A stretch of DNA of 37,861 bases. It comes from Alphaproteobacteria bacterium CG_4_10_14_0_8_um_filter_53_9 (lineage in GTDB: Bacteria > Pseudomonadota > Alphaproteobacteria > UBA2136 > UBA6156). Shown here in pieces: positions 29,532-31,345 of this stretch. How positions within the stretch are numbered: the first letter of the stretch is position 1; every line of letters begins with the position of its first letter. Location: the NCBI GenBank assembly GCA_002791805.1, contig PFND01000022.1, forward strand, positions 4,250 to 42,110. The letters run 5' to 3'. Position numbers and translations under genes: made by a program. The notes beneath the pieces are model-generated. The model was not told the DNA's origin. It did not search any database and saw only the letters and a program-made list of their open reading frames with translations.

Positions 29532-29650
29532 TTTAAACGTGAACATATAATGCGCCTTTAGCAAAGCCATCTCAAGCGTGTCACCCCGAGTGGCTAAAAC
29601 CTCAGCAGCTTTGCTGCGCTAGGTTTTAGCTCAGCTCGGGGCTACTTTCT
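29532..29650. repeat. Palindromic element copy A
   Basis: TTTAAACGTGAACA-25 nt-CTCAAGCGTGTCACCCCG, then three nested helices at 29584-29641. Confidence 0.8.
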
Positions 29651-29764
29651 CAACTATTATGATGTCCAAAAAAACAAAGTCCACCCCACTTAAATAAAAA
29701 AAAGCCCCCCAAAGGAGGACACTAGAAAAACACTACACCAAAACGCGGAAGAAGTCAAGAAAAA

Positions 29765-29798
29765 ACCGCTATGCCATTGAAGACATAACGGTTTTTTC
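29765..29798. terminator. Bidirectional intrinsic terminator
   Basis: AAAAAACCG.TATG...CATA.CGGTTTTTT. Confidence 0.7.
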
Positions 29799-30139
29799 TG
29801 AAAAAGGGATTCGCATCACCAGCGCCTCGGGCCAACCCGCCAAGAGAGTTATGGTAGACTCAAGCTGCGCAATACGAAATCCCGCTATGCAGGCGCTCTT
29901 CCTTTGCAAGAAAAGCGATTGACGACTCCGGATGTCCTGCGCGGAAAACTCTCCGCGCAGGATGAGACCATCCGTACTCTGGCTCATCAGAGTGGGTTAC
30001 CCCATTCAGGCAACAGGTTTTTGCCCGCACAGCCCTTCTTCAGCCATGGCCTGCAGCAGCCACCTCCCTCGCAGGAGATTTCTAAAAAGTTAAAGGTAAT
30101 TCCCTAAGCGGGGCCACACCGTCGCAATCCGCACGGTGC

Positions 30140-30170
30140 GCTAAAAAGCAAAAAGGACAATCACAATCCT
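30140..30170 (-). terminator. Possible minus-strand terminator
   Basis: AGGA-ttgtgattg-TCCT-TTTTG. Confidence 0.4.
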
Positions 30171-30278
30171 TCACATGGTACGCGCCATGAGTCTTTTTAG
30201 TCTGGATAAGCAGACATCTGTCTAGGATTTTTTCTGCAAACCGTCGCCCCTAAGGGAAGGGTAAAAGGTAAGCGGGAA

Positions 30279-30306
30279 AAAGGGCGGCTGGTCATCCGCG
30301 CGCCCT
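30279..30306 (-). terminator. Possible minus-strand terminator
   Basis: GGGCG...CGCCCTTTTT. Confidence 0.5.
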
Positions 30307-30339
30307 TCTTGGTTTGCTTCTGACTGCATATCAAGAAGA

Positions 30340-30387
30340 CAAAAACCCCATCATCCCTCGTGAGACCCCGAGTGCGGCGGATGATGG
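30340..30387 (-). terminator. Possible minus-strand terminator
   Basis: CCATCATCC...GGATGATGG-GG-TTTTT. Confidence 0.6.
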
Positions 30388-30569
30388 CCCGTTCTCTCCT
30401 GCGCAATGATGTGTTGCAACATGAACAGGAGAGATCTCGTAGCCAAAATGCCCCATCCATCTTCACGAAGGACAAGGCATTTCAGAATTAAAAGCGCCAC
30501 CCGCAGGTGAGTAACTAATCCTGAACCCTCACAAATCCAGAGTCAGTCAACTGCAAACTCGCGGGCTTC

Positions 30570-30643
30570 AGGCAGAAAAAGAGGCTGGACTTCCCAGGCA
30601 GCCTCTTCGTGGGGCGTTCAAGTCCACGCCTGCCTAAAACAAG
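30570..30643. repeat. Three-way-junction structured element X (contains minus-strand terminator)
   Basis: Minus strand AGGCAG..CGTGG/CCACG..GAGGCTG/CAGCCTC-TTTTT..CTGCCT. Confidence 0.65.
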
Positions 30644-30746
30644 AACATCAAGCTCGCTCATCAAAAGCCATCCGTTCTTGCGGCTGTCTTGTTTCACCCC
30701 CGCCCCGCGCACTCAAACCCAAAGGGCAAGTCGCAGGGCAGGGGGA

Positions 30747-30812
30747 TCAGGAAGGTAGAGACGGTGCCTGACGCCGTCCGTGGTCAGCCCCCACGCCTTC
30801 CTGAAAACAAAG
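30747..30812. repeat. Three-way-junction structured element Y, similar to X
   Basis: Minus strand TCAGGAAGG..CGTGG/CCACG..GACGG/CCGTC..CCTTCCTGA; shares TTGTTTT..AGGmAGGCGTGG with X. Confidence 0.65.
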
Positions 30813-30817
30813 AGATT

Positions 30818-30892
30818 GGCAGGAGATGCAGGACTCGAACCTGCGACCTGCGGAGTTAAGAATCCGCCGCTCTACCGAACTGAGCTAATCCC
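30818..30892 (-). tRNA. tRNA-Lys(CTT)-like with 8-nt anticodon loop, CCA encoded
   Basis: AGGGGAT-TA-GCTC..GAGC-G-GCGGA-TTCTTAAC-TCCGC-AGGTC-GCAGGTTCGAGTCCTGC-ATCTCCT-G-CCA. Confidence 0.65.
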
Positions 30893-30925
30893 CTGCATGA
30901 AGTGTTAAAGATAAATGTTGTAAGG

Positions 30926-31028
30926 TGGAAATGGCAGGAGTCGAACCTGCGTCCTTATGAGGTATTTTAACGGTCATGCAGATACCGAAATACTAGCCTC
31001 TTTGCTCTCCCAACTGAGCTACATTCCC
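30926..31028 (-). tRNA. tRNA-Ala-like molecule with extended anticodon region (103 nt), or a tRNA pseudogene
   Basis: GGGAATG/CATTTCC acceptor with G3:U70 and A73; intact D arm GCTCAGTTGGGAGAGC and T arm GCAGGTTCGACTCCTGC; ~36-nt anticodon loop. Confidence 0.55.
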
Positions 31029-31061: not shown

Positions 31062-31136
31062 TGGAGAGCCTGATGAGATTCGAACTCACGGCCCCTTCCT
31101 TGGCAAGGAAGTGCTCTACCCCTGAGCTACAGGCGC
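31062..31136 (-). tRNA. tRNA-Gly(GCC)
   Basis: CTTCC-TTGCCAA-GGAAG anticodon arm, GTGAGTTCGAATCTCAT T arm, encoded CCA. Confidence 0.92.
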
Positions 31137-31223: not shown

Positions 31224-31345
31224 TTTAAACATGAACACCCAAGCTAAGCGAATCCCCTTACTCTCAAGCGTGTCACCCCGGAAGCCAGAAAGCTTGGCAT
31301 TTTTAATGCCGTAGCCTTTCTGGTCTGTCCGGGGCGACTCTTGCA
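31224..31345. repeat. Palindromic element copy B
   Basis: TTTAAACATGAACA-25 nt-CTCAAGCGTGTCACCCCG, then three nested helices at 31276-31334. Confidence 0.8.

What the first reader, a model, noticed from the sequence alone, without database searches (positions are those of the whole stretch)
30926..31028. tRNA-Ala-like molecule (G3:U70) whose anticodon region is an extended hairpin
Seen: on the minus strand a fully paired acceptor (GGGAATG/CATTTCC), A73, a canonical D arm and a canonical T arm enclose AAGAG-[36 nt]-CTCAT instead of a 7-nt anticodon loop. The extra sequence folds as GTATTT-CGGT-(ATCTGCATG)-ACCG-tta-AAATAC. Established: G3:U70 is the major AlaRS identity element and is also used by tmRNA. 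Inference: the molecule could be alanylated yet not decode normally, acting as a non-decoding alanine donor or minimal tRNA-like RNA. It could equally be a tRNA pseudogene or carry an unusual intron.
Basis: partly seen in the sequence, partly recalled or inferred. Interest (0 to 1): 0.75.

Follow-up and report, generated by a model that had tools for sequence, protein, structure and literature searches.

The report
tRNA-shaped RNA with enlarged anticodon arm
A small-genome bacterium carries an RNA gene with the body of an alanine tRNA but a far too long anticodon end that cannot read codons normally; it has no relative in its own lineage, and similar misfit tRNAs, some with conserved inserts, turn up in phages and a few other bacteria.

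Summary
31028-30926 (minus) is an Rfam tRNA match (45.6 bits; cut-off 29) with all 16 acceptor, D-stem and T-stem pairs intact, G3:U70 and A73, and 47 nt where 17 are normal. The added hairpin is not significantly stable. Against the genome's own tRNA-Ala(CGC) the body shows five double changes that keep pairing and no broken pair, so it is not a fresh copy. It lacks an encoded CCA, unlike the other tRNAs compared. No homologue was found in relatives, phages, plasmids or viral contigs; no other of 385 class genomes has such a tRNA. It sits with a spare tRNA-Gly and an 8-nt-loop tRNA, upstream on the same strand of a ~1.1-kb highly structured non-coding region. A pattern scan found 130 distinct anticodon-expanded tRNA-like genes, mostly in phage contigs; three families have conserved inserts (two covary), one often beside DUF2828/DUF7788 genes. 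This gene fits none clearly. Best reading: a non-decoding tRNA-Ala-type RNA in an acquired tRNA array; relic versus function is unresolved.

The parts
30926..31028 (-). tRNA-Ala-type tRNA-like gene (positions 1-73) with a 47-nt anticodon region
   Evidence: Rfam RF00005 45.6 bits; sequence read
31022..31028 (-). acceptor stem 5' strand GGGAATG; pairs 7/7 with 30927-30933 (CATTTCC), includes G3:U70
   Evidence: sequence
31004..31019 (-). D arm GCTC-AGTTGGGA-GAGC, with G18 G19 G20
   Evidence: sequence
30988..31002 (-). 5' flank (15 nt, AAGAGGCTAGTATTT) of the enlarged anticodon arm
30971..30987 (-). central 17-nt hairpin CGGTATCTGCATGACCG with UGC at 30980-30978 and C33
30956..30970 (-). 3' flank (15 nt, TTAAAATACCTCATA), partly complementary to the 5' flank (GAGG/CCTC, TATTT/AAATA)
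30934..30955 (-). variable loop AGGAC and T arm GCAGG-TTCGACT-CCTGC; this 3' part resembles tmRNA 3' ends
30923..30926 (-). 3' end A73-C-C-U: CCA not encoded
   Evidence: sequence
31062..31136 (-). tRNA-Gly(GCC), second copy, C2:U71 mismatch in the acceptor stem
30817..30894 (-). tRNA with 8-nt anticodon loop TTCTTAAC (ARAGORN: tRNA-???, ctta)
29740..30815 (-). candidate large structured non-coding RNA directly downstream on the same strand
   Evidence: no ORF of 100 aa; z -9.6 for 29700-30815; no Rfam family above its cut-off
29704..29720 (-). terminator-like hairpin and T tract (GTCCTCCTTTGGGGGGC TTTTTTTT)

Best explanation
The gene is a non-decoding, tRNA-Ala-type tRNA-like RNA. Its acceptor, D and T arms form the normal tRNA elbow, so the general tRNA machinery (RNase P, 3' trimming and CCA addition, and AlaRS through G3:U70) can recognise it. 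Its anticodon arm has been lengthened by 15 nt on each strand, so the UGC-bearing hairpin lies far beyond the decoding centre and it does not read codons. It belongs to a small, dispensable, probably acquired array (tRNA-Gly, this gene, an 8-nt-loop tRNA) that precedes a ~1.1-kb structured RNA on the same strand. The likeliest role is as a tRNA-shaped processing and recognition module in that transcript, where the anticodon arm is free to diverge. Shown by sequence: intact body, identity nucleotides, enlarged arm, gene order. Inferred: co-transcription, processing, charging, foreign origin, role.
For: Rfam match with a 47-nt skip. All 16 body pairs intact; versus own tRNA-Ala(CGC) five double changes keep pairing and none break. 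Closest own tRNA for the 5' half is tRNA-Ala. Identity nucleotides A73, G2-C71, G3:U70, G20 present (PMC9976931). The 3' ACC that pairs with RNase P RNA is kept, and RNase P measures the acceptor and T stems (PMC10731613). The array looks dispensable: tRNA-Gly(GCC), tRNA-Lys(TTT) and tRNA-Ala(TGC, CGC) exist elsewhere in the genome. No tRNA lies at this place in 12 relatives. Same kind elsewhere: 130 distinct non-archaeal tRNA-like genes with enlarged anticodon regions and intact bodies; in a fixed register at least 4 of 5 anticodon-stem pairs are kept in 77, against 10 expected from shuffles. Downstream same-strand structured region, z -9.6; known large RNAs GOLLD and ROOL also lie near phage tRNA islands (PMC12286853).
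Against: No homologue of this gene, so no covariation and no test of conservation of the enlarged arm. The enlarged hairpin is not more stable than shuffles. No encoded CCA. In the standard register its anticodon stem pairs only 2 of 5, or 4 of 5 with a 6-nt variable loop, weaker than most others of the kind. The neighbouring tRNA-Gly and 8-nt-loop tRNA are also irregular, as expected of a decaying array. No promoter was found upstream of the array that would show co-transcription. No expression data.
Confidence: 0.42

Rival explanations
1. Relic: an acquired tRNA-Ala gene (for example from a phage tRNA array) whose anticodon arm was expanded and which no longer has a function; the body looks intact because the event is recent.
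For: Unique in its class; no CCA; C33; A.A mismatch in the outer stem; hairpin not significant; two irregular neighbours; all three tRNAs of the array look dispensable.
Against: All 16 body pairs intact and diverged from the genome's tRNA-Ala only by pairing-preserving double changes; UGC arm centred exactly (0.22% of shuffles); survives in a 1.27-Mb genome.
Confidence: 0.38
2. It is a Y-RNA-like partner of a Ro60/TROVE-like protein, as proposed here for the family-B tRNA-like RNAs beside DUF2828/DUF7788 genes.
For: In Clostridia, anticodon-expanded tRNA-like genes with a covarying insert lie upstream of DUF2828/DUF7788 genes. Bacterial Y RNAs are known to carry tRNA-like domains (PMC7790460).
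Against: No TROVE protein in this genome or relatives, with a control that rang. No DUF2828 match either, though that control did not ring. The insert does not resemble family A or B, and family D only weakly (mean-score p 0.04, best-score p 0.14, uncorrected).
Confidence: 0.07
3. Pre-tRNA-Ala(UGC) with two excised 15-nt pieces flanking a normal 17-nt anticodon arm.
For: 47 nt = 15+17+15 with UGC in the right place; archaeal genomes hit by the same pattern may carry tRNA introns there (intron reading from general knowledge).
Against: Bacterial tRNA introns known to me are group I ribozymes of hundreds of nt (general knowledge; PMC3984707 reviews them); two-sided excision would need a splicing endonuclease and ligase not shown here; C33 would remain; tRNA-Ala(TGC) already exists.
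Confidence: 0.05
4. A minimal tmRNA derivative.
For: RF00023 matches at 30 bits (E 9e-10, below cut-off 47); the 3' end GGACGCAGGTTCGACTCC resembles tmRNA.
Against: It has a full D arm and no tag domain; a complete one-piece tmRNA (139 bits) and SmpB lie elsewhere in the genome.
Confidence: 0.03

Closest known systems
tRNA-Ala(UGC), canonical
   Same: acceptor with G3:U70, A73, D and T arms, UGC hairpin of 17 nt
   Different: anticodon hairpin sits on two extra 15-nt flanks; C33; no encoded CCA
Bacillus cereus tRNAOther, a pseudo-tRNA outside translation (PMC3399842)
   Same: tRNA-like gene described as not functioning in translation; [quoted passage not shown]
   Different: carries a Trp anticodon; no sequence relation was tested here
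Bacterial Y RNAs (YrlA, RF02553)
   Same: tRNA mimicry by a non-decoding RNA
   Different: no match above the family cut-off (29.9 bits, cut-off 69, spanning two tRNAs); no TROVE protein in the genome
tmRNA
   Same: tRNA-Ala-like end and GGAC variable loop
   Different: D arm present, no tag, separate tmRNA gene exists
Anticodon-expanded tRNA-like genes of phage contigs and some bacteria (families A, B, D of this report)
   Same: intact acceptor and T arms with surplus nucleotides in the anticodon region
   Different: insert not shared; this gene is a singleton
GOLLD and ROOL large RNAs near phage tRNA islands (PMC12286853)
   Same: large structured RNA next to tRNA genes
   Different: no Rfam match of the downstream region; homology not shown

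Membership tests
Decoding tRNA-Ala | 7-bp acceptor with G3:U70 and A73, D and T arms | tested here: met
Decoding tRNA-Ala | 5-bp anticodon stem, 7-nt loop with U33 in standard register | tested here: not met
   47 nt instead of 17; C33
Decoding tRNA-Ala | charged by AlaRS and used on ribosomes | not testable with these tools
   needs RNA
tmRNA (RF00023) | score above gathering cut-off | tested here: not met
   30 bits against 47
tmRNA (RF00023) | tag reading frame and pseudoknots, D arm replaced | tested here: not met
   103-nt RNA with a full D arm
YrlA Y RNA (RF02553) | score above gathering cut-off as one RNA | tested here: not met
   29.9 bits against 69
Ro60-associated Y RNA | TROVE protein in the genome | tested here: not met
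   0 of 21 genomes, control rang; genome about 90% complete
Family B tRNA-like RNA (this report) | covarying hairpin plus ACAGCAA insert | tested here: not met
   the insert scores like shuffles
Family A tRNA-like RNA (this report) | conserved CTCAYGG..AAGGRCC insert | tested here: not met
Family D tRNA-like RNA (this report) | conserved ACTTTTCGCTNNNGGCA..AAGTTCCT insert | tested here: inconclusive
   mean-score p 0.04, best-score p 0.14, three families tried
Intron-containing tRNA (archaeal type) | excision of the insert leaving a decoding tRNA | not testable with these tools
   no RNA data; bacterial genome
GOLLD / ROOL (downstream region) | Rfam covariance match | tested here: not met
   no match at E<=5
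Non-translating pseudo-tRNA such as tRNAOther | expressed tRNA-like RNA not associated with polysomes | not testable with these tools
   needs expression data

The most novel reading that the evidence does not exclude
Phages and some bacteria carry a broad class of tRNA-like RNAs in which the anticodon arm is replaced by a structured non-decoding module while the tRNA body is kept for processing or protein recognition; this gene is an alanine-type lone member, made together with a new large structured RNA.
Probability: 0.25. Interest if true: 0.85.

Novelty: new variant of a known kind. Interest (0 to 1): 0.52.

Why it matters
tRNA bodies that cannot decode are ligands for processing enzymes, synthetases and RNA-quality proteins. 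Annotation programs miss or mislabel them (ARAGORN does not report this one). The comparison made here suggests that anticodon-expanded tRNA-like RNAs are recurrent, with at least two families whose inserts covary, one often beside DUF2828/DUF7788 genes. That would give a testable partner for an otherwise anonymous group of RNAs. I found no paper describing such families in the held library, but the searches were few and most subscription journals are not in it.

Tried and rejected
Recent pseudogene of the genome's own tRNA-Ala: rejected, five pairing-preserving double changes and no broken pair. tmRNA fragment: rejected. Y RNA: rejected for YrlA, no TROVE. Membership in families A and B: not supported; D inconclusive. 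Orthologous tRNA at ruvA in relatives: none. Exact 20-mer of the insert in viral contigs: none. Patterns with this gene's GGACG variable loop, GGGAGAGC D arm or T arm in viral contigs: no relative. Homologue of the downstream 1.1-kb region in phages, plasmids or 18 genomes of the order: none beyond the tRNAs and short weak matches. Family A in annotated phages: no match. The acceptor-pairing scripts had register errors and were redone. Some pattern hits are a tRNA followed by an extra T arm (attachment-site type); those were filtered out. Papers on TROVE/Y RNA systems that I wanted are not held.

Full report
Observation. Rfam's tRNA model matches 31028-30926 on the minus strand with 45.6 bits, over its cut-off of 29, and skips 47 nt in the anticodon region; ARAGORN lists only its two neighbours there. 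Sequence: GGGAATG-TA-GCTC-AGTTGGGA-GAGC-A-[47 nt]-AGGAC-GCAGG-TTCGACT-CCTGC-CATTTCC-A-CC-U. Acceptor 7/7, D stem 4/4 and T stem 5/5 pairs stand.

The enlarged arm. The 47 nt divide as 15+17+15. The middle 17-mer CGGTATCTGCATGACCG has the size of a normal anticodon arm, four of five stem pairs, and UGC, an alanine anticodon, at 34-36; position 33 is C, not U. In dinucleotide shuffles a centred arm with these features appears in 0.22% and one anywhere in 6.9%; I noticed it after the fact. The flanks pair in part (GAGG/CCTC, TATTT/AAATA).

Origin of the body. The 5' half is closest to the genome's tRNA-Ala; the 3' half is closer to tmRNA and to the neighbouring 8-nt-loop tRNA. Against tRNA-Ala(CGC) the 16 stem pairs show five changes on both sides, no one-sided change and no broken pair. 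It is thus a long-diverged or foreign tRNA-Ala-type gene, not a fresh copy. The 35 other distinct tRNA sequences compared all end in an encoded CCA; this one ends in ACC-U.

Surroundings. The window lies in a 1.27-Mb draft genome (98 contigs, about 90% complete) of a class in which several genomes have the alpha-type tmRNA, so probably an alphaproteobacterium; the name was not given. Next to the gene, on the same strand, are a second tRNA-Gly(GCC) with a C2:U71 mismatch and a tRNA with an 8-nt anticodon loop. Other copies or isoacceptors exist elsewhere, so the array looks dispensable. It lies between a beta-ketoacyl synthase gene and ruvA; 12 relatives have no tRNA within about 1.5 kb of ruvA. 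Downstream, 29.7-30.8 kb on the minus strand has no ORF of 100 aa and folds with z -9.6 over 1116 nt, against -3.6 for the genome's RNase P RNA, -0.9 for its tmRNA, and +0.8 and -1.6 for two coding stretches. The plus strand is also low (-7.0), so a run of palindromic repeats is not excluded. A terminator-like site ends it. No Rfam family fits, and no homologue was found. GOLLD and ROOL RNAs lie near phage tRNA islands (PMC12286853); the resemblance here is of setting only.

Relatives of the gene. BLAST against 96 genomes found only short pieces of other tRNAs and of tmRNA 3' ends. After removal of archaea and of tRNAs with a duplicated T arm, 130 distinct sequences with intact acceptor and T stems were counted; that count includes the gene itself. 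In a fixed register at least four of five anticodon-stem pairs are kept in 77 of them, against 10 expected from shuffles. So the kind is real and not chance.

Families. Family A (phage contigs): conserved insert with five of seven predicted pairs showing double changes. Family B (Lachnospiraceae and others, also phage contigs): a hairpin with double changes at all seven pairs followed by ACAGCAA. In several bacterial loci the next gene downstream belongs to one protein type, and the three such proteins scanned carry DUF2828 and DUF7788, which I regard, from general knowledge, as a Ro60/TROVE-like arrangement. Family D (Chryseobacterium, Epilithonimonas, one phage contig): insert with 24 invariant columns upstream of a conserved ~583-aa protein for which the one member scanned has no Pfam, NCBIfam or PDB match. 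The gene studied here scores like shuffles against A and B and only weakly against D.

Mechanism. RNase P reads the acceptor and T stems and pairs with the 3' ACC (PMC10731613); AlaRS reads mainly the acceptor stem (PMC9976931). Both could act on this RNA although it cannot decode. I therefore favour a non-decoding tRNA-like module in an acquired tRNA array, possibly serving processing of a transcript that continues into the structured region. Co-transcription, processing, charging and origin are inferences. A relic is nearly as likely: singleton, no CCA, C33, irregular neighbours, no significant structure of the enlarged arm. Nothing found here separates the two; a same-genus genome or an RNA test would.

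Novelty. Non-translating pseudo-tRNAs are known, e.g. tRNAOther of Bacillus cereus (PMC3399842), as are tRNA-mimicking Y RNAs (PMC7790460). A review of non-canonical tRNAs (PMC7609411) describes anticodon stems of 6 bp in the passages seen, nothing of this size. I rate the gene a new variant of a known kind; the families around it deserve their own study.

Noticed in passing
window 29740-30815 (-): About 1.1 kb without an ORF of 100 aa, extremely stable predicted fold (z -9.6; plus strand -7.0), directly after the tRNA array on the same strand and ended by a terminator-like site; no Rfam family and no homologue.
   Followed up: partly
window 30817-30894 (-): tRNA with an 8-nt anticodon loop TTCTTAAC and G73, called ctta by ARAGORN; a possible frameshift-type or decaying tRNA.
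   Followed up: no
L277, L283, L285, L289, L299, L302, L304, L326 and phage contigs L141, L164, L171, L191: Family B: tRNA-like genes with a covarying hairpin plus ACAGCAA insert in the anticodon stem; in the bacterial loci often upstream of a DUF2828/DUF7788-type gene.
   Followed up: partly
L258, L268, L280, L282, L290, L296, L297, L314, L325; phage contig L213: Family D: tRNA-like genes, some with a Trp-type CCA anticodon, with insert ACTTTTCGCTNNNGGCA..AAGTTCCT, upstream of a conserved ~583-aa protein of unknown family in Chryseobacterium and Epilithonimonas.
   Followed up: partly
L147, L169, L178, L181, L183, L189, L192, L196, L199, L203, L207, L212: Family A: tRNA-like genes in viral contigs with a conserved, covarying CTCAYGG..AAGGRCCAAA insert in place of the anticodon; no match in annotated phages.
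   Followed up: partly
L323 7242-7339 (+): Ruminococcus flavefaciens: a tRNA-Ala-like gene (G3:U70, CCA) with a family-B-type insert lies between a T-box leader and an ORF whose start reads like alanyl-tRNA synthetase; assignment of alaS is by eye.
   Followed up: partly
L260, L271: Bacteroidota loci with an enlarged-arm tRNA-like gene upstream of a RING protein of the MXAN_6230/SCO0854 type (below the curated cut-off).
   Followed up: no
G000:C63:11042-11467 and relatives L079-L090: Genomes of this order have one-piece tmRNA matching RF00023, while other genomes of the class match the alpha tmRNA family; several tags are long (e.g. AKKSNVIAFRPAAMPAMAMAA).
   Followed up: no
L057 300-376 (-), G000:C39: Truncated tRNA with CAT anticodon ending after the variable loop (29.1 bits), perhaps an integration-site remnant.
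   Followed up: no
L047 301-376 (+), G000:C96: tRNA with anticodon TAA but a short variable loop, unusual for tRNA-Leu.
   Followed up: no
window 29570-29655 and 31262-31345: Two copies of a palindromic dispersed element (TCTCAAGCGTGTCACCCCG...) bracket the array and structured region; further copies of the first occur in the genome.
   Followed up: no
L134, L144, L163, L165, L167, L175, L182, L194, L198: Viral contigs with a tRNA followed at once by a second T arm, as expected of integration-site duplicates.
   Followed up: no
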